A stretch of 64,000 nucleotides of DNA. Origin: a virus. The position numbers and the translations under genes were made by a program. Position 1 is the first letter of the stretch, and each line of letters opens with the position of its first letter. The stretch is taken from IMG/VR virus record IMGVR_UViG_3300035659_000003, positions 45,911 to 109,910 of that record. One strand, given 5' to 3'. Of this stretch, positions 16,010-62,699 are shown piece by piece. The notes beneath the pieces are model-generated. The model had not been told where the DNA came from, searched no databases, and worked only from the letters and a program-made list of their open reading frames with translations.

Positions 16010-19000
16010 TTATTCTGGGGATTTTTTAGGGTTCTTCCGACGAACAGGCCGGAATGTGGGCCGTGCCTTCCGATAGATCAGGAAGCAGCGGCAGTTAGAC
16101 CGGCAGATCGTGCTGCCGTCTCGGGGTAGGCGGGGCATCCGGTTGGCGGGCCAGGGGCTCTGCGTGGCCATCTCCAGGCACGTAGCACAGTGCTCAGCGC
16201 CAAGGGTCAGCTTCCAGTGGGCCTTCATCTGCGGCAGGTTCTCCGAGACGGTCTGATGATACAGTCCGGCGGAGCCGTCCGCGTAGAGCTTGGCGCGCCA
16301 GATGGCCTGCTTCTCGGTCTTGACCTTGCCCGCCGCCAGATCGTCGCGGAAGCCGTCGAGGTAGTGGTGCTGATGTCTCAACTCGGCCATGAGATTATCC
16401 CGTGCCCGCTGCCGTGCGTCCGGCGTTTCCTTGAGCCGCAGCGTCGAGGCGTAGGCCGACTTGCCATAGAGGTCATCAACCGCCGCGCGCATCTGTGCGT
16501 GCCAGGTATCCACGTCGCCTTCGCCGCGCCACAGGGCACACGTTGCGGTCTCCATTGCCTTCTTCGTGCGCCCGATCTCCATGTTGACGCGCTCAAGCGG
16601 GGAGGGCCACCGGCGCTTGCCTCGCTTGTCCAGCTTAAAGTACACGCGGGAGGGCAGATCGGAGTCCACGGCGGTGCGGGCCTTGTTGATGCCCATCGCT
16701 GCTAGGCGCATCAGCATCTCTGCATGCGCGATTTCCGCCAGGGTAATAGGCGCATTCCGGCTGTCCTGCACGTCCTGAGAACCAGCAACACCCTGGTTCG
16801 TGGTGACGATCCCCGTCGTGACTTCCGGTGCGTTGCCGGTGTGGGCACGAGAATCCATCGGCTCGGTTGGCGCGCCCTTCTCAACCTCCCCACCTACGAA
16901 TATCTGGATGTGCCGCCCGTCCGAGGTGGTCACGAACTTGCGGGGGGCGATCCCCAGCTCCTCACCGAAGTCCTTGTTCAGGGTATCCGCCTCGTCCTCG
17001 ACGGGGTTCCACTCAAGCAGCTCCGCGATAGCGTCGTAAAGCCCCGAGAAGCGCCGCTTAAACTTAGTAGGGCTTATCGTCATGTATGCCACGCACTCGG
17101 CGAACATCTCCGCCGAACTGTCGCGCCCGTAGTGACTCGGGAGACCGCGTGCCGTCTCCTGCGCCGCGTGGAAGGCATCGAGCCAGGTGTCAGAATTAGA
17201 GAAGCGACGCTCCGTGCCATCGTCCATGACATGAGCATACTCGTGGGCGATCACCGCCCGCATGGTGTCATAGGGGCCAGAGGGAAGCTCTCCCCCCATC
17301 GCGCTCCCCCACGACTGGGCGTCGAGGGTCAGGACACTGACCTCCGCCTCATCATATCCGACGTAGGTCATGCCCGCCGCCTTGCCCACGTCGTCTGGAG
17401 ACAGCTCGCCCGCTTCTGCCAGATCTTCCATAGCACGTCTCATATCGTCGCGGGAGTAGGTGTGCCAGACCGCATTAGGTACGCCGTGCGGTGCGGGCAT
17501 CAGCACCAGCACCTCAGCGACGATGGGCTGATCCTGAACGTAGACATCAGCGAAGTCATGCTGCTCGGCGATCTTGAGCGCGGTGAATAGCTCGTGGATT
17601 TTCTTCGGTATTGCCTCCCCGCCATGCCGGTTGATGTCGCGGATATGGCGAATCAGGGCGCTCCGTCGGACGTGGGCACCTCCGTGCTTGCCATGCTTCT
17701 TCTGATCATGCTTGCCTGGAAGGTGCTTCTCGACCCCACTCGCAGGCTGCAACGCGAACACATCATGCGTCTGCTTTGTCCAGTCGGCATTATGCATGTC
17801 CTCGTCCAGCCACACGGCCTCTTGTGCGGCGAGTTCGATATTGTGATGCCGCATATCCTGCTCGAAGCGCTCCTCCCACGCCGGTAGTTCCTGCCCTCCA
17901 GCACGCCGAGCAACGACATCAATTTCCCCGCCGATGACTAGCATCTCATACTCTTCGGCGCAGCCAGGCCCTGTGCGGAACGTCGAAAAGATCTTATCAC
18001 GAGGCACGCGGGCGGCAACCAGCATCTGCTCTTCCTCATGGTGTATAGCAAAGCGCGTTGCAACCGAGTACTCGCTGGCGAAGGACGACAGGGGGTTGAG
18101 CTTAGCACGGGTGCGCGTCGGCTCATCCGCTGGTAGTGCAGATACCCAGTCCGGAATTTTCGCTGCCTCGTCCCATCCCATACCCCGCACCAGCACGACC
18201 TCATCCATCTCCAGCTCTTTGAGAAGGGCCTGCGTGTCCTCATATACAGAGTCCACCCATGCCCGCAGAACCGGCCCGTGCTTGGAGACGATACGGTCAA
18301 TCTCGTCGGAACCATGTTCGACGTAGGCGACCGTAGTGTCCTCCACGCCGAACGCCTCTGATGCAACCCGCTGCAGTGCAACGCTCGGTGCCCGATGATC
18401 AGAACTAGATATGGCCCACGTCTTGGTCAAGTAGTAAGCGACCTTTTCCGACGAGGACAGCTCTACCCCCTTCGCCGGATCGTAGACATCGCGAAAGTGA
18501 GGAGCGAGAGTTCGTGCCGCTGCCCAGAAGGGAGCAGCCTTAGCCATCTTGTCTTCGGCGTCTGCCCACCCTTCGGCGAGAGCCATCGTCAATGTCTGCC
18601 GAACACCCGTCAGCTCATCCCGATTGCCTCCCCGAAACCGATAGTTATCCCCTTCCCGAGAAATCCTTACAGGCGAGCCGACTTTCTCATAGTAGTCATT
18701 CAAGAAGCGAGCCGCTTCATAGGAGAGCTTGTCAAGATTCTCCGACTCCTGCTCAGGCGTTACGCCGAGCTTCCGCTCCATCCCCTTCGCCGTCCGCTCC
18801 ATGATTTCCTGCTTCAGATCAGCGCGGGCGTCATCGTCCCTAACATCGATGCTATTGCCCGCCGTCAGGATACCTACCTGCTCTTCCAGCTTCGCACTGA
18901 AGCTCCTATCCTTTGCCCGCTGGCTGAGCACGCCGTCCACCGAGAATAATGCGTCCCTGATACGCACAGCAGCATTGAAGTTCTCGTAGCCACCCTCCTT

Positions 19001-20974
19001 CTTCGCCCTGCGTATCATCGCTGCAAGCGCCGTGTGAAGGCGATCACGAATGGTCTCGAGCAAGCCGTCGCCGAGGTTGGAAAATTCTGGAATGTCGCCA
19101 CGAGTGACTCTCTCCAGAATCTCCCGATAAAGGTCACGTGCTTCCGAGGGGTCGAGCCAGTCCACCGCCCCCACGCGCCCCGCTGCTGCGTGGCCACGCG
19201 CACGCCCGTGCTTCTTCTGATCATGCTTGCCTGGAAGGTGCTTCTCGATCTTCTTGCTCTCCGGAATGGAGCCGGAGCCAGTCGCGCGCCCAACGTGCGG
19301 GGTCTCCGCGCCGCCCTCGGAACCCTCGTAGCCAGTCTCCTGCCCTTCTTCGGAGGTGCCCTCTTCCGGCGTGATAGGCTTGATTGCCTCGCTAGGGGTT
19401 ACGTCCCCCTCAGCCAGCCGAATAACGTCCCCGCCACGGCTCATCACAACGACCTCGTGCTGGCCCATGCCCTCCAACTCAGGCAGGGCATCCGAGAGCA
19501 GGAACACCTGATCGACGGGCAGCTTCCTGGAGACGACCGATCCGTCGCCGTATCCCTCCGCTCCTGCCCAGTCCTCGGCCACCTTCATACTCAGCGTCCA
19601 CGATTCCAGCGGACGAGGGCGATACTCCTTGCCCGCCACCAAGTCCTCGTGCATCTTCCCCGAAACACCCCTGTGCAGCTTCACTGACTTCAGCCCTGTC
19701 TGTTGCAGTGCCTTCGAGGAGGCAAGGCGTAGAGCCTTCAACACCACGGGGTTCAGTGCATGGTCGACCTTGGGGTTCGCGCCCGCGATGCCGTCGATGT
19801 AGCTATCGGCGTCGTCCGACGGAGCGTCAGGCTTTCGGGATGCCAGGTGCTCCTTGGCGGCCCTGCGCCCCAGCAAGCGGTCAACCAGGAGCGTCCCGCC
19901 ATCCTTGTCCCATTCCCAGAACCACACGAGGGCAGCAGCCTCGGCCTGCTCCTGTGAGACGCCCCAGTCCTTCAGAACACGATTGAACGTCCCTCGGATG
20001 CCGTGCACCCCCCAGTCTTTCTCCCGCCCTGCTTCAGGGTCGGCCTCATAGTAATGCCCGCCACGTGGCCCCTCTTCGACGTGCTCTCCGCCTGGCGGCT
20101 CCTCGCCCTCGCCAATGTAGATGCGCCCTTTCCTGGCTTGCGCCACGTAAGAAGGGATGCCTACGCGTACGCCGACGTTCTTGGGGTGGATGTCCTGATC
20201 CAGATCGTCTAGCTCACTCCACTCCTCGCCGTGCGCTTTCTGAATCGGCCCTTCGCTGGTCTCAACGGCCTCAATCGCCAGGATCGCGTCAGTATTGTAA
20301 ACGTAATAACTGCCGAGGCTCGCCCCGTCAAATCCAGCAGCGACAGTATTGCGCGTATAGGACTGTGCATCCCGCACTCCCGCCAAATCAAAGGCACTAT
20401 CATACTGAGTCAGGAATCGCCCTCTGACCTTGGCCTGCAAGATCACCATGTCTGGCCGCATCTTCCCCGTCATGGGTGCGGTGAACCACATGCGAGCCTT
20501 TCTCGCTGACGGCGCGAACGAGATGGCGTAGTCGTTCCGGTACCGAGGGCGGATATGCTGCAGGTGGAACCCCTCCCTCAATATCGCTTCGGCGCTCGCC
20601 CGCGTCGTCCCGTGATAGAGCGTCTTCGTCTCTAGTGGCACGGGCGCGCCCCGTCGTTCAGGCACGGGCCGCTTTGGGCTAGGCTTGTCAGGCCGTGTCC
20701 ACTTGCGCGCTAGGCCTTCAGACGCCGATTCTGTGGCCCTGTGGGGCGAATCCTGGCCAGTCTGTGGCGAAGGGCGACCCTTCCCGCCTACGTCGTAATA
20801 GCGCCCGCCACGAGGCCCCTCCTCGATATTGACGCCCTTCGGGGGTTGCTCGCCAGGCTGCAGGTAAACGCGACCCTTCGCTACCTCGCGAATGACCTCC
20901 AGATTGGGATCGGGAGCGACTACGAAATCTGTGTTCCCCTGTCGGATTCTTACTCCTTCGCGCCGTCTAGCCAT
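16010..20974 (-). CDS. MuF-like head protein fused to three ADP-ribosyltransferase-like domains and a zincin
   Basis: 1654 residues. The last ~250 carry Mu gpF-like minor-head features: HCATCLEMA (Cys1596, Cys1599) and CRSNCRC (1624-1630). Ahead of them lie, in order: a PGExPP...GPRGGRYY module (34-60); ART-like domain 1 with YHGTT (120-124) and YVYNTDAILAIE; a second module (283-309); ART-like domain 2 with HRG (Arg425), SWT (458-460) and QHE (505-507); a KHLPGKHDQKKHG linker (578-590); ART-like domain 3 with VRG (Arg920), LSSFAS and EYE (1008-1010); a second KHLPGKHDQKKHG (1084-1096); and a zincin HEYAH (1244-1248). MuF proteins with toxin domains are known, but usually with one toxin. Stop/start with the protease gene is TAATG. 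Confidence 0.8.
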   Translation of the reverse strand: MARRREGVRIRQGNTDFVVAPDPNLEVIREVAKGRVYLQPGEQPPKGVNIEEGPRGGRYYDVGGKGRPSPQTGQDSPHRATESASEGLARKWTRPDKPSPKRPVPERRGAPVPLETKTLYHGTTRASAEAILREGFHLQHIRPRYRNDYAISFAPSARKARMWFTAPMTGKMRPDMVILQAKVRGRFLTQYDSAFDLAGVRDAQSYTRNTVAAGFDGASLGSYYVYNTDAILAIEAVETSEGPIQKAHGEEWSELDDLDQDIHPKNVGVRVGIPSYVAQARKGRIYIGEGEEPPGGEHVEEGPRGGHYYEADPEAGREKDWGVHGIRGTFNRVLKDWGVSQEQAEAAALVWFWEWDKDGGTLLVDRLLGRRAAKEHLASRKPDAPSDDADSYIDGIAGANPKVDHALNPVVLKALRLASSKALQQTGLKSVKLHRGVSGKMHEDLVAGKEYRPRPLESWTLSMKVAEDWAGAEGYGDGSVVSRKLPVDQVFLLSDALPELEGMGQHEVVVMSRGGDVIRLAEGDVTPSEAIKPITPEEGTSEEGQETGYEGSEGGAETPHVGRATGSGSIPESKKIEKHLPGKHDQKKHGRARGHAAAGRVGAVDWLDPSEARDLYREILERVTRGDIPEFSNLGDGLLETIRDRLHTALAAMIRRAKKEGGYENFNAAVRIRDALFSVDGVLSQRAKDRSFSAKLEEQVGILTAGNSIDVRDDDARADLKQEIMERTAKGMERKLGVTPEQESENLDKLSYEAARFLNDYYEKVGSPVRISREGDNYRFRGGNRDELTGVRQTLTMALAEGWADAEDKMAKAAPFWAAARTLAPHFRDVYDPAKGVELSSSEKVAYYLTKTWAISSSDHRAPSVALQRVASEAFGVEDTTVAYVEHGSDEIDRIVSKHGPVLRAWVDSVYEDTQALLKELEMDEVVLVRGMGWDEAAKIPDWVSALPADEPTRTRAKLNPLSSFASEYSVATRFAIHHEEEQMLVAARVPRDKIFSTFRTGPGCAEEYEMLVIGGEIDVVARRAGGQELPAWEERFEQDMRHHNIELAAQEAVWLDEDMHNADWTKQTHDVFALQPASGVEKHLPGKHDQKKHGKHGGAHVRRSALIRHIRDINRHGGEAIPKKIHELFTALKIAEQHDFADVYVQDQPIVAEVLVLMPAPHGVPNAVWHTYSRDDMRRAMEDLAEAGELSPDDVGKAAGMTYVGYDEAEVSVLTLDAQSWGSAMGGELPSGPYDTMRAVIAHEYAHVMDDGTERRFSNSDTWLDAFHAAQETARGLPSHYGRDSSAEMFAECVAYMTISPTKFKRRFSGLYDAIAELLEWNPVEDEADTLNKDFGEELGIAPRKFVTTSDGRHIQIFVGGEVEKGAPTEPMDSRAHTGNAPEVTTGIVTTNQGVAGSQDVQDSRNAPITLAEIAHAEMLMRLAAMGINKARTAVDSDLPSRVYFKLDKRGKRRWPSPLERVNMEIGRTKKAMETATCALWRGEGDVDTWHAQMRAAVDDLYGKSAYASTLRLKETPDARQRARDNLMAELRHQHHYLDGFRDDLAAGKVKTEKQAIWRAKLYADGSAGLYHQTVSENLPQMKAHWKLTLGAEHCATCLEMATQSPWPANRMPRLPRDGSTICRSNCRCFLIYRKARPTFRPVRRKNPKKSPE

Positions 20975-27299: not shown

Positions 27300-27310
27300 G
27301 AGTCGGCCCC

Positions 27311-30743: not shown

Positions 30744-30749
30744 TAGCTC

Positions 30750-33290
30750 CTACGGCAGGGCGTGAATCCGTGATGCCCCGCGCCGCCTACCCTCAGCCAT
30801 TGCCTGCCGCTTGGCGTCGGCGTACGAGCCGTGGATGAAGTGAGGCTTAGGGTCGTCGTCATACTGGAATGCCCATCCGCCCGTGCCTCTCGGCTTCTTC
30901 CCGTGGCTCCACTCAAAGCGCTCGGTTGCGACGTGCCTCGGCCCAGCCCCCTTGCCTGCGCGCGGGTCGTGCTCGCTGTGCGGGCTGTTCGGCGTGTCGT
31001 GCTTCTTTACTGGTGCGGTGGGGTCTGTCGGCACGCGCCGAGTCGGGGTGACGCCCCAGTCGCTACCAGATGTCCATACCTTACCGGATGGGCTCGACGC
31101 AGGGGCGGCCCCTGGCTTACGCTTCTCCAGCGCATCTGTTGCCGCGCGTAGCTCAGCCTGAGCCTTAGCGACTTCAGAATTCATCTTTTCGGCTTTTCTC
31201 TCCACGGGCACCTCTCGCGGGTATCCCGCTGCAGGCCGCTTGCCCGTCCACGCCGGACTAGAAGAGGTGTGCTCAATCTGCCCCATACTTCCCATTTGCG
31301 GGTGATAGGCACGAGCATGACTGTGCGTGTCGCCTGTCTCTTGATGCGTGTGCTCGCGTCCCTGGACGCCGTGCGGGTCAGCCAGCGGAGTCTTGCGAGC
31401 CTTGGAGAACGCGGGGCTCATCTGATCGCGCTTATGCATTGACCCACCAGGAAGCGTGTCCTGGGGCGGGGGCTTTGTAACCCCTGCCTTGGGGTCTCTG
31501 AAGTGCCGCTGCAGATCACGCTGTGCGGACGACATCCCACCCACCAGCTTCTTCGGCTTAGGCGCAGGGCCATAAGGTGCCCCGCCGTGCGGGTGAGGGC
31601 CATGCTCCTGTGGAGCGTCGTGCTTGTCTACCTCGGCCTTCTTCGCATTAGCCATTCCACCACGAGCGTGACTGGCCGAGTGGCCGAACTTGCGCTCGTG
31701 CTCACTGTATCCAGAACCATAAGGCCCAGGCGTCCGGCTTTCCGGCGCGCGGGGCTGCGGCGGAGAAATCTTCACCTTCCCGTGCGCGCCGTAATCGTGC
31801 TCGTGGGTCTCCCCACCAGGCCCCATGTGACCGTGCAACCTTCCCTGTCCGCCGCGAGGCCCTCCGTGGGGGGTCTCCTTCTCCAGCGCGGACGTTGCCG
31901 CACGCAGGGTTGCCTGTGCCTTGGCAAACGTAGGGCTCATCTTCGTGACTAGTGGCTGGACTTCGGTATGTGGCGTAAACTTCCGAGATGCGGGATGCTT
32001 TTGCGTCACAGGGTGACCCTCGGACGCCCCCTCGTGGCGATGCTGCCCAGGAGGACTGCCGTGCGTTGTGCGAAGCTTGCTGGGATCATAGGTGTCCTTC
32101 TGCACCTTCGCCTTCTTCGTCGGCGTAGCGGATGGGCGGGTTATTTTATAAGGATGATAATCCGGAGCCGGTACTTCGCTAGTGCCGCGCTGCCTGCGAA
32201 ACGGGCTGCGCGTCGAAGGGGCGTACCCGCCCTGGTGCCTCACCGACATCGTTCCCTGCTCACCTTGGGCCTTCATCGCTGGTTCCGATCGCGTGGGTGT
32301 CGGGGATGGATGGCTCCCAGGGCGCGGCCCAGGGACAGGAGCGACTGTAGACTGGGGCTGTGGAGTTGCGGGCTCGGCCTTCTTCGCAGGAGAGAAGCGT
32401 CCAGGGTAGTCCTGGGGATTCTTCTTGGGGCGAGGCGGGTCTGGCTTGGCACGCGGCCCCGCGCGATTACCGCCACCGCGTCCCGTCAGCCATCGCAAAC
32501 GCTCTGGGGACGAGCGAGGTGCGGGAGCATCCTCGGCCTTGTCCATAAGGTAGCTTGAGGTGCTCTTCTGCCCCGTGCTGGTGGGCTTACGCGGACGGCC
32601 AACCGGCTTGAAGCCGGAGGTCAGCGGCTGCGGATGTGTGTGGCGCTCGCCCTCGGGTGCTCGACTTCTCGATCCGAAGTGCGGGTGCGTCTGTGGACGC
32701 GAGTAGCGCTTCTTGTCCCCATAATGCTTCTCAAGCTCCTCGTCCTCGGCCTTGTTCATGCCCCCTCGGATCGAATGTGGGGCTCTCGTCGCGTAAGAGT
32801 CAGCACTAGTTCCCTTCTTCGACTTAGGCGGCCAGTGCGGAATACCAACTTCCTTGTCCTGGGCCTTCCACATGGCCTCGCGCCGTTTCGGTTCGCGCCG
32901 GACGGTCTTGCCCTTATCCAGGTCGCCTACGGCCCGAACGGACTTCCGCAGCGCAGATAGCGCCTTAGCCAACTCCACCGTATCCGGCAGCTCCTCACCG
33001 TCCTCGGCCTTGCCCACAACTTCCTTCAGGAACAGCTCCAGGGCCTGGTTGAGCTTCGCACCCTTGGCGAGCCCAGGCATCTGAAAGATACCAGCACCCG
33101 TCACGGCGTAGTAGGAACCGCCCTCGCGCCCCCACAACTCGGCATAGTTCGCCCCGTTGTCGGCGGACACGTAATGAACAATTCCGCCCTCGGCACCCTT
33201 GGACAGGTTCGGCCAGCGCGATGCGGTGCTGAGTGTGATGCCCATAGGCTGCACAGCCTTCGCGAGCCGACTCAAAAATGTCTGGATCAT
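30750..33290 (-). CDS. Large His/Lys/Pro-rich cassette protein, 846 aa
   Basis: A short folded N-terminus (residues 1-115: GGIVHYVSADNGANYAELWG...VVGKAEDGEE) is followed by ~700 residues of disordered, basic sequence full of His pairs (GERHTHP, REHTHQETGDTHSH, GETHEHDYG). It repeats FxKAxxxLRAATxALEK twice and carries KHDTPNSPHSEHDPR and DKHDAP variants of the neighbouring linkers. Many xKAE sites punctuate it. It is the first gene of the capsid cassette after a terminator-like hairpin. Role as scaffold or internal protein is inferred. Confidence 0.5.
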   Translation of the reverse strand: MIQTFLSRLAKAVQPMGITLSTASRWPNLSKGAEGGIVHYVSADNGANYAELWGREGGSYYAVTGAGIFQMPGLAKGAKLNQALELFLKEVVGKAEDGEELPDTVELAKALSALRKSVRAVGDLDKGKTVRREPKRREAMWKAQDKEVGIPHWPPKSKKGTSADSYATRAPHSIRGGMNKAEDEELEKHYGDKKRYSRPQTHPHFGSRSRAPEGERHTHPQPLTSGFKPVGRPRKPTSTGQKSTSSYLMDKAEDAPAPRSSPERLRWLTGRGGGNRAGPRAKPDPPRPKKNPQDYPGRFSPAKKAEPATPQPQSTVAPVPGPRPGSHPSPTPTRSEPAMKAQGEQGTMSVRHQGGYAPSTRSPFRRQRGTSEVPAPDYHPYKITRPSATPTKKAKVQKDTYDPSKLRTTHGSPPGQHRHEGASEGHPVTQKHPASRKFTPHTEVQPLVTKMSPTFAKAQATLRAATSALEKETPHGGPRGGQGRLHGHMGPGGETHEHDYGAHGKVKISPPQPRAPESRTPGPYGSGYSEHERKFGHSASHARGGMANAKKAEVDKHDAPQEHGPHPHGGAPYGPAPKPKKLVGGMSSAQRDLQRHFRDPKAGVTKPPPQDTLPGGSMHKRDQMSPAFSKARKTPLADPHGVQGREHTHQETGDTHSHARAYHPQMGSMGQIEHTSSSPAWTGKRPAAGYPREVPVERKAEKMNSEVAKAQAELRAATDALEKRKPGAAPASSPSGKVWTSGSDWGVTPTRRVPTDPTAPVKKHDTPNSPHSEHDPRAGKGAGPRHVATERFEWSHGKKPRGTGGWAFQYDDDPKPHFIHGSYADAKRQAMAEGRRRGASRIHALP

Positions 33291-37400: not shown

Positions 37401-37618
37401 GGTGCCGTATCCTCCTTCTTTAGCGCCTTCCGCAACCTCAACTCCATAACGGCCAGGCGCTCTAGCATCATTGCCCCCTGCGCGGGGGTCAGATGTTGCA
37501 GGTCAACATAATCATAAGGCATTTTTCCGGACATTTTAGCGATTGTGCGCTGCAATCCGGAAATCTCTAGGGCCTCCTGCGCCCCAATGAACTCGTAGTC
37601 GTCGTAGTTGTTAAGCAT
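37304..37618 (-). CDS. Hypothetical protein, 104 aa
   Basis: MLNNYDDYEFIGAQEALEI, LQHLTPAQGAMMLERL and a basic Ser-rich tail. The last ~97 bases overlap the phosphoesterase gene in another frame, so the C-terminus may be a by-product of overlap. The ATG overlaps the upstream stop. Family unknown. Confidence 0.5.
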   Translation of the reverse strand: MLNNYDDYEFIGAQEALEISGLQRTIAKMSGKMPYDYVDLQHLTPAQGAMMLERLAVMELRLRKALKKEDTAPCHNASRRSRKGSPTKTTSERKRGSSAALSSS

Positions 37619-38042
37619 CGCGACGGCCCCTGCGCGTGTGAGCTTTCAGCGCTTGTCGAAGAGCCTCTCGGCGCGCTTCCTCATCAGGGGGAATCCGCCG
37701 ACCGCCCTTCAACACAGGCATCTCGTCATAAAACCGCAGGATGATATCAGCCTGCTCCCCCTTCACGATCAGTAACGGGCGAATCCGCCGAAGAATCGTA
37801 TGGAGTTTGTGCGAGCCGATGGCCCAGCGCCACTGATCACGACCATTGACGTTATACCGCACAGCGTCGAAGAACGTCATTGTGCCACCAAAGGTCGCCG
37901 CCAGCCAGTCGATCAGTCTTTTGTCTACTTGCTGAAGCTCCAGCCTTGGGCAGTGCGGCGAGCTATTCCGTCCCATAATTTTCAGATAGCCCTCGCCGTC
38001 GATAAATGCGGCCAGCCGCGCCCAGTCGATCTCGCTAGGCAC
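37611..38042 (-). CDS. LAGLIDADG homing endonuclease
   Basis: 143 residues, GTG start overlapping the kinase-like gene stop. IDWARLAAFIDGEGYLKI is the LAGLIDADG helix with acidic Asp/Glu. RLELQQVDKRLIDWLAATFG and WRWAIGSHKLHTILRRI match family strands and helices. Single motif, so a homodimer is expected. Free-standing between structural genes. Confidence 0.8.
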   Translation of the reverse strand: MPSEIDWARLAAFIDGEGYLKIMGRNSSPHCPRLELQQVDKRLIDWLAATFGGTMTFFDAVRYNVNGRDQWRWAIGSHKLHTILRRIRPLLIVKGEQADIILRFYDEMPVLKGGRRIPPDEEARREALRQALKAHTRRGRRDA

Positions 38043-38760
38043 GTGTCACCGTCGCAAGATGGCGGGCGATTTCTTTACGAAGCCCTGCGAGCTTGGCCTC
38101 CCAAAGCTCTACTAGCGCAGCGGCCTCCTCGCCGTGCAGCCCCACCCGATCCGCAAGTTCTCGCACTTCGCGCCCGCGCCCCTGCGCCGCGCGCGCAACC
38201 TCAGCCATCTGGAGCAGCATCCTGGGCCATAGATCAGGGTCTCTGTATATCCCAGCAAACTTAGCGGGGCGCAGGCAGCGGAGCATCGGAATCGCGGGCA
38301 TCTTACCCGTAAAGCCGTTATCGATTGCCCTGATATGCCCGTCAGCCACGACAAACCAGTTTCCTTCGTGACGATCCGTGTTGCCTGCGAGGAAGTCCAG
38401 GATGACCATGTTCGCCATGTCGTGCAAGAAGGCATCCCCGCCGTGCGCCCAGCCGTGGATGCCGTCAACATTGGCAGCCTGAACACCGTTCTCCACACGC
38501 CGCATCATAGAACCGACGCCTTTGCCGAGATCGACTAGCCGCACTTCAGGCACAATCCCGCCAAACATCATCTGAGCAAGCTCATACGCAAACAGCTCAT
38601 CCCGCTCTTCACGCACGCCTACCTTGTGGAACCAGACCGATCCATCCAGCATATGCACCAAGAAGGTATTTTCACTGTGGATGCCGCCGCGAATTCCGGC
38701 CTCATCAAGGGGAGCAATGCTCTTTACGTCCCGTGTGGTGTAGCGAACAGGTCTGCTCAT
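38035..38760 (-). CDS. PI3/4-kinase or HipA-type kinase-like protein
   Basis: 241 residues. VWFHKVG (Lys46), ELFAYELAQMM, then LDFLAGNTDRHEGNW (Asp129, Asn134) and RAIDNGF (Asp147) reproduce the DxxxxN plus DxG core of the PI3/4K-HipA-actin-fragmin group. GNTDRHEGN is typical. It lies beside virion genes. Targets could be a virion protein or a host factor. Catalytic residues look intact; true kinase activity is not shown. Confidence 0.7.
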   Translation of the reverse strand: MSRPVRYTTRDVKSIAPLDEAGIRGGIHSENTFLVHMLDGSVWFHKVGVREERDELFAYELAQMMFGGIVPEVRLVDLGKGVGSMMRRVENGVQAANVDGIHGWAHGGDAFLHDMANMVILDFLAGNTDRHEGNWFVVADGHIRAIDNGFTGKMPAIPMLRCLRPAKFAGIYRDPDLWPRMLLQMAEVARAAQGRGREVRELADRVGLHGEEAAALVELWEAKLAGLRKEIARHLATVTRA

Positions 38761-41081: not shown

Positions 41082-42872
41082 CTAGAACAGCCCGCCGCCC
41101 TGTCCGCCGCCGCCCTGTCCGCCGCCCATCCCAGGCATGCCGCCGCCCATCTTCTCCTGCTGCTTCTGCTGCTCCGCCATCGAGAGCACCTTGCCGCTGT
41201 ACGTAAACTTCTCCGTGTCGGGATCGTACTCGACGCCGAAGCCCATCATGGCCATCGTCTGGGCGAACATGCCCTTCTGCTGCAGGAGGTTCAGGCGCAT
41301 GAGTTCGCTCTGCTCTTCCGGTATTGCTAGCTGCAGCTTCCAGTCGGTGATGCCGAAGGCATCCATGAGCGAGGGAAAGACCTCGGTGTGGTAGCTGCGC
41401 TGTGCGCCCTCGACCACGCGGCTCATGACGACGAGCTGCTGGCTTTCGCTGTTGAGCCCCCCCACGCCCGCCACGCTGCTCATCCAGATCTGGCTGACGC
41501 CATAGAGTCCGGCAACCCGCTCGCGAATCTCGTCGCGGACAGGCAGGTAGTTCAGCTCGTCCAGGCTGTAGGCGAAACGGACGAACTCGGTCTTGCCCTG
41601 GCCGGTCTTGCTGTTGACCGCGATCCAGGGGATGTAGTGCGGGTCTTGCTGCATCTTGGCGGCCATCTCCGCCTTGCGGCTCTCCAGGCCCTGCACGTCG
41701 TCCGTCACCGTGGCAATGATACCCTGCGGCACGCGCCGCTCGTAGAAGTAGTCGTAGAGGTAGCGATCCATCCCGATAAGCGTCAGCGCCTTTTCGTAGA
41801 CACTGAGGATCGGCGGGTAGCCATATAGCTCGGTGGGCGTGTACCGGCTCCAGTGAGTCACCTCGTCGGATGTCAGGTAGAGCACCTTGCTCTGCGCGCT
41901 GCCATATCCGCCCTGCAGGTACTGCTCGTTGTACTTGTACCATACGGGGAACGTCTGCAGCCCGCACTCGGGGCACTTCCCCTTCCACTCGTACTCCCAG
42001 CCCTCGCCCGCCGGAACCTCCAACAGGTTGTCGCGGTGGAGCAGGCAAATGTGGTGCCGCTGGCCAGGGATGCCTCGCTGGTCGAGGTCAAACTCCACCA
42101 GCACGGGGTCTAGACGAAAGATCTGGCGTGGCTCGCTGCGAAGCTTGTAGGAGCCGTCCTCCTGGGGGATGCCGTAATAGTCCTTGCTGATGAGGATGAA
42201 GGCGTCGTCAACAACGTTCAGGTCGTCCTCGCACTCCCTCAGCACAACTTCCAGGCTCTGCCCGAAGTGGTTACAGCGCCGAAGGAACTTGTCAAACCGA
42301 TCCCGCTGAGTCTCGTCAGGAGCATCCAGCTCGGGATGCTGGAGATGCTTCTTACCCTCCTCGTCTACCTTGACGACCGCCTCCCCGTCGTCGTCGCGGA
42401 GCGGCTCGGAGCATTTGTAGTCTATCTTCTTGGCCTCTGCCTCTGAGAATTCGCGCCTGCAAACAGGACACTTCCACTCAAAGGCGGGCTCCCATTCCAG
42501 CCCGCGCCGGAAGATCTCGTTTCGAAGGTGCGTGACCGCCGTGCGCACGTCCGCGTTGTTGTTGGCAATCACATAGAGATCAAGCAAGTAGCGCCGGTCA
42601 GCGATGTACTGGCGCTTGCCCTTAAAACCATAATCATTAATTCCTATAAGTCCCGTAGACGATTCTTGTACACTCGCAGCTTTGAGCATAAGCTGTGCTA
42701 CAAAGCGCTCCGACGCCGTCCCCCCGCCGCTAGTGTTCATCGAATTCGCGATCGTGGCGAACGTGTCGTGAGCCGGATGCCCCGCAGGGAACGGGTTTGC
42801 TCCGGCCTGCGCCGTCAGAACAAGAGGCTCCGCCTTGCGGATAATCTCACTCAGATTGCCTCTGATGCCCAT
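41082..42872 (-). CDS. Portal protein with zinc-ribbon insertions
   Basis: 596 residues. The central and C-terminal parts read as a phage portal: VTHWSRYTPTELYGYPPILSVYEKAL, YFYERRVPQGIIATV, FAYSLDELNYLPVRDEIRERVAGLYGVS and SESQQLVVMSRVVEG. Two Cys clusters, CPVCRREF...YKC (135-154) and CPECGLQTF (300-303), are insertions not usual in HK97-like portals. The end is Gly/Met-rich. The N-terminus has IIRKAEPLV, similar to xKAE sites in the capsid cassette. It forms the head vertex and DNA channel. Confidence 0.85.
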   Translation of the reverse strand: MGIRGNLSEIIRKAEPLVLTAQAGANPFPAGHPAHDTFATIANSMNTSGGGTASERFVAQLMLKAASVQESSTGLIGINDYGFKGKRQYIADRRYLLDLYVIANNNADVRTAVTHLRNEIFRRGLEWEPAFEWKCPVCRREFSEAEAKKIDYKCSEPLRDDDGEAVVKVDEEGKKHLQHPELDAPDETQRDRFDKFLRRCNHFGQSLEVVLRECEDDLNVVDDAFILISKDYYGIPQEDGSYKLRSEPRQIFRLDPVLVEFDLDQRGIPGQRHHICLLHRDNLLEVPAGEGWEYEWKGKCPECGLQTFPVWYKYNEQYLQGGYGSAQSKVLYLTSDEVTHWSRYTPTELYGYPPILSVYEKALTLIGMDRYLYDYFYERRVPQGIIATVTDDVQGLESRKAEMAAKMQQDPHYIPWIAVNSKTGQGKTEFVRFAYSLDELNYLPVRDEIRERVAGLYGVSQIWMSSVAGVGGLNSESQQLVVMSRVVEGAQRSYHTEVFPSLMDAFGITDWKLQLAIPEEQSELMRLNLLQQKGMFAQTMAMMGFGVEYDPDTEKFTYSGKVLSMAEQQKQQEKMGGGMPGMGGGQGGGGQGGGLF

Positions 42873-43266
42873 GTCGCTTCCTCAACTCTTGATAGCCCGC
42901 CGCCTGCGCGATCTTAGCGAAAGGAGGCAGGTGCCGTCCGCGCGTGCCTATAGGGAATATGGCGAAGATCTCCGCCTCGTGCTGTTTCTCGCCCCGCAGG
43001 TAGGGCAGCAACTGGCAGGCGACGTCCTGCGCTGGTTTGCCACAAATTTTCCACACCCACGCATCCCGCCAATGGGCCTTACCGTTATACCTCTTGAGCG
43101 AAGTGACGCTCCCGCCGAACGGCAGAAACGCGTCGACTAGCGTGCGGTCGGTGTTGCCTATCTGCATACTGAGCGAGAACTGCCGCCTCGTAGAGTTGAT
43201 TCCACAGTAGAAGCACCCCTCGCCCTCAAATAGGCCCGCCAACCACGCCAAGTCAGTCGCAGTCAC
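42847..43266 (-). CDS. LAGLIDADG homing endonuclease
   Basis: The GTG start at 43266 overlaps the GroES-like stop (TAGTG) behind GGAGG. 139 residues with LAWLAGLFEGEGCFYCG (LAGLIDADG helix), FSLSMQIGNTDRTLVDAFL and a C-terminal helix. It overlaps the portal start by 26 bases. The portal frame is intact, so it is intergenic, not intronic. Confidence 0.8.
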   Translation of the reverse strand: MTATDLAWLAGLFEGEGCFYCGINSTRRQFSLSMQIGNTDRTLVDAFLPFGGSVTSLKRYNGKAHWRDAWVWKICGKPAQDVACQLLPYLRGEKQHEAEIFAIFPIGTRGRHLPPFAKIAQAAGYQELRKRHGHQRQSE

Positions 43267-43583
43267 TAATCCTCCAGGCGCGCCCTGATGAACGTCTCGT
43301 CTATGAGCAAACACGGGGCCTCTTTGCCCTCCGAGTCCACGAACGTCCAGCGCCCGCCCATCCACTCCTCGAACAGCACCGTGTCACCCACGTAGATCTC
43401 CTCGTCGACGCGCTCCCCTACCGCCAGAACCTTGCCGATGGTGGTGTTCTTAGGCTGAAGCAGAAGAATCCCCTCCGGTGCAGGCCGATCCCACACCTCC
43501 GCGAGAACTACCCAGTGCCCCCGCAGGGTCATCTCCTCAAAGCTAACGCCCGAAGACGTGTATCCGCTGAGCTTGCTACTCAT
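43266..43583 (-). CDS. GroES-like co-chaperonin
   Basis: The start MSSKLSGYTSSGVSFEE at 43583 overlaps the upstream stop. 105 residues: WVVLAEVWDRPAPEGILLLQ, TTIGKVLAVGERV, IYVGDTVLFEEWMG and LLIDETFIRARLED follow the cpn10 beta-barrel order, including the mobile-loop region (residues ~25-40). Phage co-chaperonins (e.g. T4 gp31) help fold the capsid protein with host GroEL. Its place right before the portal agrees. Confidence 0.75.
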   Translation of the reverse strand: MSSKLSGYTSSGVSFEEMTLRGHWVVLAEVWDRPAPEGILLLQPKNTTIGKVLAVGERVDEEIYVGDTVLFEEWMGGRWTFVDSEGKEAPCLLIDETFIRARLED

Positions 43584-47601: not shown

Positions 47602-47700
47602 TCAGGCGTACTTGCAGGCAAACAGGAAGAAGATGCCAAAGTGGAATTTCCAGATTTCGATCTGGAACCCTATCCTAATGCCGCCCTCGTCATCCCTCAT
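47602..47700 (-). CDS. Small aromatic peptide, 32 aa
   Basis: The ATG overlaps the RNA-ligase stop. MRDDEGGIRIGFQIEIWKFH then FGIFFLFACKYA: alternating aromatic and hydrophobic residues, a style seen in tiny phage proteins of unknown role. Accepted because of coupling. Confidence 0.45.
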   Translation of the reverse strand: MRDDEGGIRIGFQIEIWKFHFGIFFLFACKYA

Positions 47701-48616
47701 GCGTAAAGCCCTCCTCCGCTAGCAACAGCTTATACCACTCAGGGAATCCGGCGGTCGCGATGCGGGTTATCCGCTGCCAAGCCCACCGGAACAGCGCGTC
47801 CTTGATGGCGTCCTCCTCTTCCTTCAGGACGTCCTCCTTGATCTCCTTCAGCAGCGGGCCGATGTCCTGGGGGGCATGCGTCCGCTCCCCGCGCTCCTCC
47901 ATGTGCTGGATCGCCTTGCGCCAGCGTGCCTCGGCGTGAAGGCCTATGCCTATTTGCTCGATGATGTCTTTCGACTGAGGGTTCGCCGCGCCCCAGGACT
48001 CGCGATGGACTTCCTTATAGGCTTCGCTGACGTACTTCCCCATAATGGTCTTCTTGTCCCGCCCGTACAGGCCGTAGGCCTTGATGACCACGCCCTCTAT
48101 CTTGGGGCCACCGAGGAAGGACTCACACGCCAACAGATTATTCAGCGCTTCCATTGAGTCGAATGGCTGGCCCAGCAGTCGTGGTGGCCAGGTGCCGATA
48201 TACATCAGAGGCACGCACTCCAGACCGATCCTCGCGCACTCCGCGCGCTTCTCGTCCGGCGTCAGGTAGTCCTCAACCCCTCGGTCGATGTCAAAGATCA
48301 CCACGTTCTTCTCAGGCACGCGATCGTAGAAGAGGGCGTTGTGCTTGCGCTTGTTGAGTACCTCGCCTCGGTACACCCAGCCTGGGTGCAAAGGCAGCTC
48401 GCGGACGTTCTCCACCGCCGCCTCGAACATCTTGTCGGGCGCGTCGGTCTGATCTTTGCCCTTGCTGCGGCAGACGAACTCGCCGCCTACCGTCTGCATG
48501 AAGGAGAACTGACTCCCATCGACCTTCTCCTCCACCACCACGGGGCCGGAGAACAGGTCTCCTAGCTCCCTGTGGCCGAGGGCATAAATCGAGCTGTAGG
48601 ACGGAATTGCACCCAT
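47690..48616 (-). CDS. RNA ligase (T4 Rnl2-like family)
   Basis: 308 residues. VVVEEKVDGSQFSFM holds motif I with Lys31 as the AMP attachment site. WVYRGEVL, VIFDIDRG and KIEGVVIKAYG represent later nucleotidyltransferase motifs, and KKTIMGKY supplies motif V lysine. The C-terminal ~90 residues are helical. Rnl2-type ligases seal nicks in double-stranded RNA or repair cut tRNA. Five tRNA genes follow within 4 kb, which favours a tRNA-repair role against host anticodon nucleases. Confidence 0.8.
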   Translation of the reverse strand: MGAIPSYSSIYALGHRELGDLFSGPVVVEEKVDGSQFSFMQTVGGEFVCRSKGKDQTDAPDKMFEAAVENVRELPLHPGWVYRGEVLNKRKHNALFYDRVPEKNVVIFDIDRGVEDYLTPDEKRAECARIGLECVPLMYIGTWPPRLLGQPFDSMEALNNLLACESFLGGPKIEGVVIKAYGLYGRDKKTIMGKYVSEAYKEVHRESWGAANPQSKDIIEQIGIGLHAEARWRKAIQHMEERGERTHAPQDIGPLLKEIKEDVLKEEEDAIKDALFRWAWQRITRIATAGFPEWYKLLLAEEGFTHEG

Positions 48617-48996: not shown

Positions 48997-49240
48997 CTCG
49001 TATCAGCTCCTCTAACCGCGCCACCATCTGTGGGCGGTCTATCTTCGGAACCTCGTCAATCAGCCGTGCGAGTCCTTCCTTGAGCGTGATAAGCTGCTTG
49101 CCAACCTCGCCGATGATTTCCTGCAGCGCCGCGATGTCGTCGGGGCCGCAGTCGCAGTCTAGCGGGGCGTTCTGTATCCGCTCCTCGGCACCTTCCGGCA
49201 CCGCGTAGCTACGAAGCCGGTCGATCAGCGACAGGCTCAC
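48983..49240 (-). CDS. Hypothetical helical protein, 85 aa
   Basis: SLIDRLRSYAVPEGAEERI, a CDCG turn, then two helices (IAALQEIIGEVGKQLITLKE; MVARLEELIRDA). Overlaps both neighbouring genes. Coiled-coil adaptor-like. Confidence 0.55.
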   Translation of the reverse strand: MSLSLIDRLRSYAVPEGAEERIQNAPLDCDCGPDDIAALQEIIGEVGKQLITLKEGLARLIDEVPKIDRPQMVARLEELIRDASV

Positions 49241-49610
49241 GTCCGCGCTCCCGAATGTGGATCACAGGAATACCCGCCTTCTGTGCGCGCTGCACCATAT
49301 CGCCCGTGCCAGGCGTGTACTCGGCGGTCGGGGTGAAGGCGATCACCAGGTCAGGGTCACCTTCGTCTAGCATCTGTTGATTGCGGATGATGCCCGCCCT
49401 CTTGCCATGCTGCGCCCAGTTTGCAGGGAAGGACACCACATCGTAACCTAGCGCGCGTCCGGCCTTGTCCGCCAGCATATCGGCCCCGCGCGCCGCGCCG
49501 TGGATGATGACAATCTCCTGCAAAGGATAGAAAGTACGCACAGCCTCCATGACGCTGTAGAGAAGCTCGTAGTTGGTGAACTCTCGGCTGCCGCAGACTA
49601 GGATTCTCAT
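49209..49610 (-). CDS. SLOG-domain (YspA/DprA-like) protein
   Basis: 133 residues. MRILVCGSREFTNYELL, IVIIHGAARGADMLADKAG and RNQQMLDEGDPDLVIAF form the Rossmann-like SLOG fold of the YspA/cpYpsA group, with CGSR and GAARGAD loops that bind nucleotide ligands. Bacterial relatives sense or process NAD-like nucleotides or act with DNA. Phage copies are common but uncharacterised. Confidence 0.75.
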   Translation of the reverse strand: MRILVCGSREFTNYELLYSVMEAVRTFYPLQEIVIIHGAARGADMLADKAGRALGYDVVSFPANWAQHGKRAGIIRNQQMLDEGDPDLVIAFTPTAEYTPGTGDMVQRAQKAGIPVIHIRERGREPVADRPAS

Positions 49611-56468: not shown

Positions 56469-56609
56469 TCATAGCAACCAGGTGGCCAGCCGGTAAAGCC
56501 CCACCGCGCCCGCGAATACAGGGATACCGATGACCGCCGCCGCGAATAGCATGAAGACCGTGAACTCCAGCCAGTCCTCGTTGACCCCGAATGGCCGGTC
56601 AGTCTTCAC
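56469..56609 (-). CDS. One-pass membrane peptide, 46 aa
   Basis: GTG start at 56609 behind GGGGAGGTG. VKTDRPFGVNEDWLEF then a membrane helix (MLFAAAVIGIPVFAGAVGLY). Unknown. Confidence 0.5.
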   Translation of the reverse strand: MKTDRPFGVNEDWLEFTVFMLFAAAVIGIPVFAGAVGLYRLATWLL

Positions 56610-56892
56610 CAGGCACCTCCCCCGCCAGATCATCCGCGAATGCGGCCAAAACGTCACCGTGACAAGGAAGGGGGGCGCACCAGCAACCGAGGCGCTTGCC
56701 CCGCATTGCCTTCAGCTCGGCGACCGCGCCAGGTTGCCAGAGCAGGGACGACCACAGCCAATCTTCGTATTTTGCTATGACCTCTTCACGTGTTCCGTCC
56801 TGCCCGATCTGGTAGGGGTTTCCCCACTTACTCGGGCGACCAATGTAGACGTCGTAAGGCTCGCGCTTGCAGTGGACGACGGTGGTTTTCAT
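56599..56892 (-). CDS. DUF4326-like protein, 97 aa
   Basis: VYIGRPSKWGNPYQIG, MRGKRLGCWCAPLPCHGDVL are the hallmark motifs of the DUF4326 family found in many phages and bacteria. The conserved Cys/His residues hint at an enzyme. Role unknown. Confidence 0.8.
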   Translation of the reverse strand: MKTTVVHCKREPYDVYIGRPSKWGNPYQIGQDGTREEVIAKYEDWLWSSLLWQPGAVAELKAMRGKRLGCWCAPLPCHGDVLAAFADDLAGEVPGED

Positions 56893-58688: not shown

Positions 58689-58805
58689 TCATTCTGCGCG
58701 CCGGTCATCCAGCCAGCGTATCCTCGGAGGCGGCTTGCGCCATAGCTTCTTCACGCGGTCAATGACCTTGCGTAGAATCCCTGGTGCCTTCGGTGACTTC
58801 TTCAT
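58689..58805 (-). CDS. Basic peptide, 38 aa
   Basis: [20 protein letters not shown] then [19 protein letters not shown] overlaps the CAP-protein stop. Highly basic; may bind nucleic acid or membranes. Confidence 0.45.
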
Positions 58806-59902
58806 TCCGTGTCCCCGCTGAGGTCGAGCACCCAATACCACGTGGACGCGTTGTCGTTCTCCCCACGACTACCGCGCGCACAACCTACGCCGAGTGCATC
58901 GAAGTCGCCGTTAAGCATATTAAGCTTCTCCTGTCCCCCATACTGGCCAGACCATCCCTGGAAAACGTAATCGGGTCGAGGCGCTGAGGGATCACTTGTT
59001 CCCATACCCTCACGATTCTCTGCGCACCGCATCGTTGGGTAATCCCCGCAACCATACCCAAAGTCAGCCAACCGCTGTGCAAGGCTTCGCCCCAAGGAAT
59101 CCTCCCCGTTTCGACTCTGGTTATACCGTCCGGCCTCGTCTTCGCTCATCCACTGAGCGGATTGCATCAAGACCGGCGATATACTCAGCGGCGCAACTCC
59201 GTTCCTAACCCTGTAATCGTTAACGAGAATGATAAGCTCATCAGCCCAAGGGCTGTCAACGCAGGATGTAGCCGTGGGAGGTGGTGTTGGCGTTGGTTCT
59301 GGCGTCGCTGTTTGCGTCGGCAAAGGTGTGGCTGTGCTTGTGGGCGTCGCCTCGGGTGTTGGCACAGGCAGCGACTCACAAGCTAGACCATCATTATCGT
59401 TTCCGTCCAGCCCGAATGGATCACTTAGGTCAGCGTTGAAGCACGCTTGCGCCGCAGCCTGGGTGGTAAAATCAGAGCAGTTGCAATCGGTGAGCGCACA
59501 TGCGCCGCATACCGCCACAGGGGGTGTTGGTGTCACCGTGGCTGTGGGCGGCGTCGTGCTAGGCGTAGCCGTCGGCGTAACTACGGGCTCCACAACCGCG
59601 CCAAGAGCCAGCAGGCCCCGCATGTCGGTCAGCGGCTGCAGATTGCTCACCTCTGGTTTGCCCGTGAACCAGCGTGACCATGCCCCCGTTTGTGGGTCTA
59701 AGGAGTAGGCCGCATCTACCGCGCCTGTTCCGCAGGTAGCTAGGGCCGCGTCCGCCGGTGTAGTTGGCCCGCTCCATGTGGAGATTGACCACTTGCCCTG
59801 CTGCGGGCAGTTATGGAGTTGGCCCGAAGACGTTGCGCCAACCGTCATCACGCCCAGCAAAGCCGCAGCCCCTAGTGCCAGGGCTATGAGTAGCTTCTTC
59901 AT
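58802..59902 (-). CDS. Exported CAP-domain protein with excalibur-like motif
   Basis: 366 residues: signal [20 protein letters not shown]; an N-terminal domain ([20 protein letters not shown]) of a style seen in Chloroflexota exported proteins; a TPTATP linker; an excalibur-like Ca-binding segment ([17 protein letters not shown]...[11 protein letters not shown], ~140-180); another PT linker; and a C-terminal CAP/SCP-like domain ([45 protein letters not shown]). CAP proteins act extracellularly on cell envelopes. Phage-carried copies are uncommon. Confidence 0.75.
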
Positions 59903-61957: not shown

Positions 61958-62226
61958 TATTCCTTTGCTCCGCGTTGTAGCTCCTGCACAAGCTCTGCGA
62001 TGCGCCGGTCAGCAGCGCCTAGCGCCCGTTGGTGCGTGAGCAGCTCTGCCGTCAGGTGCTCGATAAAGGACTCCGCCTTCTCGAAGAATCGGTAGGCGCA
62101 CAGGAAGCAGGCCCCACAGTTGCAGGTTCGCCCCTGCTCTACCGCCGCCAGCAGCCAGCCGCTCGTGTTCTGGAATAGGGCCAGTGCCCGCTTAGCGGTC
62201 ATCGGAGTGCCAGTCTCGTGCGTCAT
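61957..62226 (-). CDS. Hypothetical zinc-binding protein, 89 aa
   Basis: The start MTHETGTPMTAKRALALF at 62226 overlaps the macro-domain stop. TCNCGACFLCAYRFF has four Cys in ten residues; helices follow (IEHLTAELLTHQRALG). Unknown. Confidence 0.5.
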   Translation of the reverse strand: MTHETGTPMTAKRALALFQNTSGWLLAAVEQGRTCNCGACFLCAYRFFEKAESFIEHLTAELLTHQRALGAADRRIAELVQELQRGAKE

Positions 62227-62699
62227 TGGGGCTTCTCCTTGTAGACGACTACGAAGCGGTCGTCCAGCCACTTCTCCAGGATGGGCTTGACCCGCTCCCA
62301 CTCCAGCCCGCCGTTACCGCAGCCAGGACGGGGCAGGACAACGCACTTGACGGAGGGGTGCAGGTGCTCCGCCCAGACCTGCAGGTTCAGGGCCGAATGG
62401 TAGATCAGCTCCGGATCGGCCTTCTCCCACCAGTTTTGCTTGACGGGGAACGCGATTAGCGTCATGGGCCTGTCGCCCAGCACTATCGGGAACGCGTGGA
62501 GCTTGTTGCCGAACTTCCTAATCGACGCGCCGAGCAACCGAGGGAGATCGGCCCATCGCTGTTTTGCTTCGAGCGCGACGCCTCGCCCCATAACCGCCTC
62601 GCCGTTCTTCTTTACGAATCCGTTGGTGGTTATCGCCACGGCGTCGGCTTGCAGTGCTGTTGCGGCGTCCCATAGGTCTCCCTGAAGCTCTCTCATCAC
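62223..62699 (-). CDS. Macro-domain protein (ADP-ribose binding / hydrolase-like)
   Basis: 158 residues: LQGDLWDA (Asp8), ADAVAITTNGFVKKNGEAVMGRG (ADP-ribose loop 1, residues 18-40), LPRPGCGNGGLEWERV (loop 2, 122-137). The order and GxGxGGL loop match macro domains of the ALC1/DarG type that remove ADP-ribose from proteins or DNA. Phages could use it against DarT-like host defence, or to protect themselves from the ART-like domains of their own MuF protein. Catalytic activity not shown. Confidence 0.8.
   Translation of the reverse strand: MMRELQGDLWDAATALQADAVAITTNGFVKKNGEAVMGRGVALEAKQRWADLPRLLGASIRKFGNKLHAFPIVLGDRPMTLIAFPVKQNWWEKADPELIYHSALNLQVWAEHLHPSVKCVVLPRPGCGNGGLEWERVKPILEKWLDDRFVVVYKEKPQ

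What the first reader, a model, noticed from the sequence alone, without database searches (positions are those of the whole stretch)
62223..62699. Macro domain encoded by a phage that also encodes ART-like domains
A DarG/ALC1-like macro domain (PRPGCGNGGL loop intact) lies in an ECF-like-promoter region, while three ART-like domains lie in the head cassette. It may be the phage's own antidote to its cargo during virion production, or a countermeasure to host DarTG defence. The pairing has a clear test.
Basis: partly seen in the sequence, partly recalled or inferred. Interest (0 to 1): 0.68.

Follow-up and report, generated by a model that had tools for sequence, protein, structure and literature searches.

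The report
Phage-type DarG-like macro domain hydrolase
A tailed phage carries a small enzyme-like protein of the family that removes ADP-ribose; it most likely undoes a bacterial ADP-ribose-based defence and probably is not an antidote to the phage's own ADP-ribosylating cargo, which relatives carry without it.

Summary
The ORF at 62223-62699 (-) is a real macro domain. Its model (pLDDT 94) is closest to DarG macro domains, then TARG1, and DarG's catalytic Lys80 and base-stacking Trp83 match Lys87 and Trp90. It lacks DarG's C-terminal half and splits from bacterial DarG with 100/100 support. The family is almost entirely viral. An ECF-like promoter motif upstream is over-represented. Of the three 'ART-like' domains, one is well supported, one weakly, one by motif only.

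The ART-macro pairing fails the proposed test. Two phages carrying the best ART lack the macro, and in the closer one the terminase-portal interval where it sits is complete. The two ART families searched were absent from the macro-positive phages other than this one. The macro associates instead with SLOG genes (adjacent or fused in its nearest kin) and DUF4326; this phage has both, plus an RNA ligase, in the same 22-kb module.

Best reading: a stand-alone phage hydrolase countering host ADP-ribose-based defence, most likely nucleobase-linked (DarT-type) ADP-ribose. DarT counter-defence stays plausible; the antidote idea is unsupported. Phage macro domains are already catalogued, so this is a new member of a known kind. 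No activity was measured.

The parts
62223..62699 (-). macro-domain protein, 157-158 aa (GTG 62699 or ATG 62696)
62439..62441 (-). codon of Lys87, equivalent of DarG catalytic Lys80 (FPVK / FPTK)
   Evidence: alignment; invariant in 82 of 82 relatives
62430..62432 (-). codon of Trp90, equivalent of DarG Trp83 (thymidine-stacking)
   Evidence: W in 77 of 82 aligned relatives and 16 of 16 bacterial DarG; role of W83 from PMC9967889
62304..62333 (-). PRPGCGNGGL substrate-binding loop
62696..62887 (-). 63-aa ORF overlapping the macro start (TGATG), kept in L004
63054..63082 (-). ECF-like promoter motif GTGACC-N16-CGTCATA upstream of the two-gene unit
56599..56892 (-). DUF4326 protein (proposed by Iyer et al. 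to process phosphates on ADP-ribose), same module
   Evidence: PF14216 E=2.8e-30, translation
49209..49610 (-). SLOG protein (YAcAr, PF10686), same module
   Evidence: E=3.4e-18
47690..48616 (-). RNA ligase (PF09414), same module
   Evidence: E=1.5e-11
16010..20974 (-). 1654-aa head-cassette polyprotein with ART-like domains, a zincin-like HEYAH segment and a Cys-rich MuF-like C-terminus
17885..18394 (-). ART-like domain 3 (DRAT family, R-S-ExE)
19370..19984 (-). ART-like domain 2 (R-S-QxE motif, weak)
20225..20704 (-). ART-like domain 1 (LYHGTT motif only, unproven)

Best explanation
The gene encodes a stand-alone, phage-type ADP-ribosyl hydrolase of the ALC1/TARG1/DarG class. It is made in the infected cell and strips ADP-ribose placed by a host defence, so that phage replication can go on. 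The most likely substrate is ADP-ribose joined to a nucleobase in DNA (the DarT2 product on thymidine): Lys87 would attack or polarise the ribose-base bond and Trp90 would hold the base. The phage's SLOG and DUF4326 proteins, in the same module, probably deal with released or related ADP-ribose derivatives. Shown here: fold, class, conserved catalytic and base-stacking positions, viral distribution, module, lack of linkage to the ARTs. Inferred: activity, substrate, timing, and which host system is countered.
For: AF2 model pLDDT 94 with DarG macro domains (5m3e, 5m31, 5m3i, 7omu) then TARG1 as top PDB hits. DarG Lys80 equivalent invariant in 82/82 relatives and the Trp83 equivalent W in 77/82; these are the DarG residues given for catalysis and thymidine stacking (PMC9967889). 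Purifying selection against L004 (dN/dS 0.33). Family nearly restricted to viruses: 234 viral matches, 4 loci in 84,980 cellular species, so selection is for a phage function. Neighbours in 74 non-redundant loci: UDG/polA in 13, DUF4326 in 6, ThyX in 6, RNA ligase in 5; isolated phages LIS04 and SP-15 carry it near DNA polymerase A. Same-module SLOG, DUF4326 and RNA ligase. Precedent: the ALC1-like class shares thymidine de-ADP-ribosylation (PMC9411070) and a T4 NADAR removes guanosine-linked ADP-ribose from RNA (PMC11833690).
Against: No activity data. The host is unknown, so presence of DarTG in it cannot be checked. The SLOG/DUF4326 association fits soluble ADP-ribose derivatives at least as well. 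The phage clade is far from bacterial DarG (100/100 split, long branches) and has a different first loop (TTNGxxKKNGEAVMG versus NTVNCVGVMG), so its substrate may have changed. In this phage the gene is in an auxiliary module, not next to the polymerase.
Confidence: 0.5

Rival explanations
1. It acts on small soluble ADP-ribose derivatives used as host defence signals or toxins (cADPR-like signals, ADPr-1''-phosphate), as part of the phage Macro-SLOG-DUF4326 set proposed by Iyer et al. 2022.
For: The phage has all three genes. Across 47 macro-positive contigs, SLOG lies within 1 kb of the macro in 4 of 13 cases where both occur (0.42 expected, p=0.0006) and DUF4326 within 5 kb in 5 of 11 (1.1 expected, p=0.003). 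The macro's nearest kin after L004 are L047 and L050, whose macro is 163 bp from a SLOG gene or fused to one. Same grouping in isolated phages PM2, MTATph1 and Pylas. Published prediction: PMC9503650.
Against: In this phage the genes are 5.4 and 12.6 kb away from the macro, not adjacent. The retained base-stacking Trp points to a base-linked substrate. I know of no such activity shown for DarG itself.
Confidence: 0.27
2. The phage's own antidote: it removes ADP-ribose that the ART-like cargo domains put on host or phage molecules while virions are made.
For: Both are encoded by one phage. The ART-3 active-site motif R-S-ExE is intact.
Against: G003 and G334 carry the ART-3 family without a macro; G003's terminase-portal interval is complete and macro-free. 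ADPrib_exo_Tox was found in none and DRAT in none but this one of 47 macro-positive contigs (other ART families not searched, fragments possible). Genes are about 41 kb apart, and the macro's promoter-like motif is absent from 15.6-61 kb, which includes the head cassette. DRAT-type arginine ADP-ribose is removed by ARH/DraG, not ALC1-like macro domains (PMC10789625).
Confidence: 0.06
3. RNA-repair accessory: it clears ADP-ribose-phosphate by-products or ADP-ribosylated RNA ends next to the phage RNA ligase and tRNAs.
For: RNA ligase and five tRNAs in the same module; macro, RNA ligase and a DprA-like gene lie within 4 kb in Proteus phage PM2; human TARG1 and MacroD1 remove ADP-ribose from RNA phosphate ends (PMC11833690).
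Against: No KptA/Tpt1 in this phage or in any of 49 others by PF01885, though ART-like domain 1 has a sub-threshold Tpt1 resemblance (E=0.31). RNA ligase near the macro in only 5 of 74 loci.
Confidence: 0.1

Closest known systems
DarG2 (macro-domain antitoxin of DarTG; PDB 5m31, 5m3e, 5m3i)
   Same: Macro fold, substrate loops, FPxKxxW motif with catalytic Lys and base-stacking Trp, no TARG1-type Asp.
   Different: No C-terminal DarT-binding half (158 aa versus 329-338-position models), separate clade 100/100, longer first loop; no DarT seen by eye beside it.
Phage macro domains of PHROG phrog_335 (Bacillus phage SP-15, Listeria phage LIS04, Moorella phage MTATph1, N4-like and T4-like phages), catalogued by Iyer et al. 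2022
   Same: Same family, about 36-45% identity, best viral structural match TM 0.88; SLOG, DUF4326 and RNA ligase nearby in several.
   Different: Only sequence divergence and the phage lineage; the family label 'phosphatase' is not supported by a test here.
TARG1 / SCO6735 (ALC1-like hydrolases)
   Same: Same class by fold; class shares thymidine de-ADP-ribosylation (PMC9411070).
   Different: TARG1 uses a Lys-Asp dyad and SCO6735 a Gln; this protein has the DarG-type Lys alone.
Known anti-DarT factors AdfA and AdfB
   Same: Phage-encoded counter to DarT would be the same role.
   Different: AdfB is a 77-aa protein that binds DarT, not a macro domain (PMC11481870).

Membership tests
Macro domain superfamily | macro fold with conserved ADP-ribose-binding loops | tested here: met
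   AF2 pLDDT 94, 160 PDB matches at E<=0.001, top ones macro domains; loops conserved
ALC1/TARG1/DarG class | closest structures and catalytic Lys of DarG/TARG1 type | tested here: met
   DarG and TARG1 fill the top ten PDB ranks; Lys invariant 82/82
DarG antitoxin | C-terminal DarT-binding domain | tested here: not met
   158 aa, match ends at position 136 of 329 and 146 of 338 of the DarG models; 57.9 bits vs cut-off 250
DarG antitoxin | encoded beside a DarT toxin | tested here: inconclusive
   The ORFs flanking the macro, read by eye, are small or unrelated; no DarT model was run on the record
DarG antitoxin | groups with bacterial DarG in a tree | tested here: not met
   31 phage-type and 13 DarG rows split 100/100
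DarG antitoxin | removes ADP-ribose from thymidine in DNA | not testable with these tools
   needs a biochemical assay
Phage Macro-SLOG-DUF4326 set (Iyer et al. 2022) | Macro, SLOG and DUF4326 in one phage | tested here: met
Phage Macro-SLOG-DUF4326 set (Iyer et al. 2022) | adjacent or fused genes | tested here: inconclusive
   not adjacent here (5.4 and 12.6 kb), but adjacent or fused in the nearest kin L047 and L050
ART toxin - macro antidote pair | linked genes that co-occur in related phages | tested here: not met
Poa1p-type ADP-ribose-1''-phosphatase (the PHROG label) | Poa1p catalytic residues and phosphatase activity | not tested
   Poa1p is a distant structural hit (rank 19); residues not compared

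The most novel reading that the evidence does not exclude
The phage-type macro family is a widespread, so far untested class of enzymatic anti-DarT factors, which repair thymidine ADP-ribosylation on phage DNA, and its SLOG partner acts on the same pathway, for example by sensing or removing the released ADP-ribose.
Probability: 0.25. Interest if true: 0.6.

Novelty: new member of a known kind. Interest (0 to 1): 0.3.

Why it matters
Macro domains are common in medium and large phages (40% and 56% by Iyer et al. 2022), yet in the literature searched here no substrate was found for one. The conserved DarG-type Lys and Trp across 82 phage proteins give a sharp, cheap prediction (thymidine de-ADP-ribosylation), and the recurring SLOG link gives a second. 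Either result would help explain a gene family present in very many phages.

Tried and rejected
Antidote pairing with the ART cargo: tested by co-occurrence from both sides and rejected as the leading reading. KptA-type RNA repair: no KptA by Pfam in any of the 50 records. NADAR partner: absent here, 5 of 47 macro contigs, no significant linkage. Structure of ART-like domain 1 from a single sequence: failed, pLDDT 32, not used. Searches for relatives of each ART-like domain alone found none in viral contigs; the two-row ART-3 profile found G003 and G334. ART-like domains 2 and 3 against PDB sequences: no ART match. A possible ECF sigma factor at record 16441-17007 has no Pfam match. Literature search for an anti-Thoeris macro domain: nothing held. 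Capture of a host DarG: rejected by the tree and by near absence from cellular genomes.

Full report
WHAT THE WINDOW IS. The window is bases 45911-109910 of a 109,910-bp virus record. It encodes a tailed phage: portal (window 41082-42872, PHROG portal E=4e-48), head cassette, tRNAs, and, on the rest of the record, terminase, capsid, tail-like, polymerase and helicase-like genes. Nearly all genes read on the minus strand. The large terminase ends at record base 782 and the macro gene lies near the other end (record 108133-108609). In the relatives L004/G005 and G012 (terminase about 97% identical) the macro follows the terminase by about 2.1 kb on the same strand, which is the distance expected if the ends of this record join. 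The record is thus close to a complete, circularly permuted genome.

THE MACRO DOMAIN IS REAL. ORF 62223-62699 (-) matches PHROG phrog_335 (E=3.9e-24), the PADLOC DarG model (E=4e-17, residues 32-148), the NCBIfam DarG model (57.9 bits, cut-off 250) and the DarG macro domains 5m3i and 5m31. Pfam Macro is sub-threshold. The AF2 model (pLDDT 94.1) has as best PDB matches the DarG macro domains of Thermus aquaticus, M. tuberculosis and Thermosipho, then TARG1; the best viral match is Bacillus phage SP-15 (TM 0.88). The gene starts at GTG 62699 or, more likely, ATG 62696, overlapping the stop of a 63-aa ORF, an arrangement kept in L004. dN/dS against L004 is 0.33 on 20 differences.

ACTIVE SITE. 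FPVK-QNW aligns with DarG FPTK-KHW: Lys87 corresponds to catalytic Lys80 and Trp90 to Trp83, the residue described as stacking on thymidine (PMC9967889). In 82 aligned relatives Lys is invariant and Trp is kept in 77; all 16 bacterial DarG checked have FPTKxxW. TARG1's Asp125 is not retained, as in DarG (PMC9411070). The first loop differs (TTNGxxKKNGEAVMG versus NTVNCVGVMG), so substrate preference may have shifted.

NOT A CAPTURED DarG. The protein lacks the C-terminal DarT-binding half. A tree of 31 phage-type and 13 bacterial DarG macro domains splits them 100/100 with long stems. A profile-derived scan found 234 relatives in viral contigs but 4 in 84,980 cellular species. This is a viral family. 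Among cultured phages it occurs in SP-15-like, N4-like, T4-like and other phages, and Iyer et al. 2022 (PMC9503650) already report macro domains in 40% of medium-sized phages.

THE ART-LIKE DOMAINS. All lie in the 1654-aa protein 16010-20974. Domain 3 (17885-18394) passes Pfam DRAT (27 bits, cut-off 25) and shares R, SS and ExE with phage G003 (43% identity). Domain 2 aligns with domain 3 in register (hhalign p=0.007) and weakly with DRAT (E=0.31). Domain 1 rests on the LYHGTT motif (PARP E=0.28; Tpt1 E=0.31), and its structure prediction failed. MuF-fused ART cargo is a known theme (PMC5512222, PMC9503650).

CO-OCCURRENCE TEST. The portal query found four relatives. G003 (99,994 bp) has a homologous cassette with the DRAT-type ART and further ART-like motifs in an 1854-aa protein and no macro by sequence or profile. 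G334 (84,946 bp), also with the DRAT-type ART, has none either. The same profile found the macro in all 47 macro contigs, so it is sensitive. In G002-G004 the terminase-portal interval is complete and 1.0-1.7 kb long with no macro, whereas here it is about 21.9 kb; absence at that position is therefore not a gap in the assembly. From the other side, ADPrib_exo_Tox is in 0 of 50 records and DRAT only in G000 and G003. Other ART families were not searched and some contigs are fragments, so this shows no linkage rather than proving none exists.

WHAT THE MACRO DOES TRAVEL WITH. The same 22-kb module of this phage holds DUF4326 (56599-56892), a SLOG protein (49209-49610) and an RNA ligase (47690-48616). 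In 47 macro-positive contigs, SLOG lies within 1 kb in 4 of 13 (0.42 expected, p=0.0006) and DUF4326 within 5 kb in 5 of 11 (1.1 expected, p=0.003); DUF4326 is on the same strand in 11 of 11. The expectation assumes uniform placement, which ignores the general clustering of phage auxiliary genes, so these p-values are optimistic. The two closest kin after L004 in the tree, L047 and L050 (98/79), have the macro beside and fused to SLOG. Isolated phages show the same company. Iyer et al. describe exactly this Macro-SLOG-DUF4326 association. In 74 non-redundant loci the commonest neighbour is a UDG/DNA polymerase I gene (13 loci; families named by eye).

PROMOTER. GTNACC-N16-CGTCATA occurs five times in the record, all on the coding strand, about 0.6 expected; one copy precedes the macro unit and is kept in G005 and G012. 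None lies between 15.6 and 61 kb, so not in front of the head cassette.

MECHANISM. Most likely the protein removes ADP-ribose placed by a host defence; the DarG-type Lys/Trp pair favours a base-linked adduct such as DarT-modified thymidine, and the gene company favours an additional or alternative link to soluble ADP-ribose derivatives. The antidote reading needs linkage or co-occurrence, which is absent, and a chemistry (arginine adducts from a DRAT-type ART) that this class is not known to reverse (PMC10789625). All statements on activity are inference.

VERDICT. Real, well-classified, ordinary for a large phage, with a clean prediction to test. New member of a known kind.

Noticed in passing
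window 16010-33290; L028 and L037 in relatives: Head-cassette polyproteins share recurring linker peptides between unrelated cargo domains (YLKPGEEPPEGV..GPRGGRYYE, KHDTEENPEHSHDPTQ, KHLPGKHDQKKHGK); relatives keep linkers while cargo differs, which suggests modular cargo swapping or cleavage sites.
   Followed up: partly
window about 43000-63960 plus record 1-782: A 22-kb module (macro, DUF4326, SLOG, RNA ligase, tRNAs, Dam) sits between terminase and portal here, where relatives G002-G004 have only 1.0-1.7 kb.
   Followed up: yes
window 51515, 53044, 56116 (-): A second promoter-like motif, TAAC followed by CGTCTAT at a fixed distance, occurs three times in register in the module (64-nt repeat family D4).
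   Followed up: no
L001:16441-17007 (record coordinates, -): 188-aa ORF that by eye resembles region 2 of ECF sigma factors; no Pfam match.
   Followed up: partly
window 38035-38760: PI3/4-kinase-like protein as a separate ORF; a similar domain is fused into the head-cassette proteins of G003 and G004.
   Followed up: partly
L050 (G016:16588-17208): A 270-aa protein that fuses the phage-type macro domain to a SLOG domain.
   Followed up: yes
window 58802-59902: Secreted-looking protein with a CAP/SCP-like domain and proline-threonine-rich linkers, seen by eye only.
   Followed up: no
window 37611-38042, 42847-43365: ORFs with LAGLIDADG-like motifs (homing endonuclease-like) around the portal and head genes, by eye only.
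   Followed up: no
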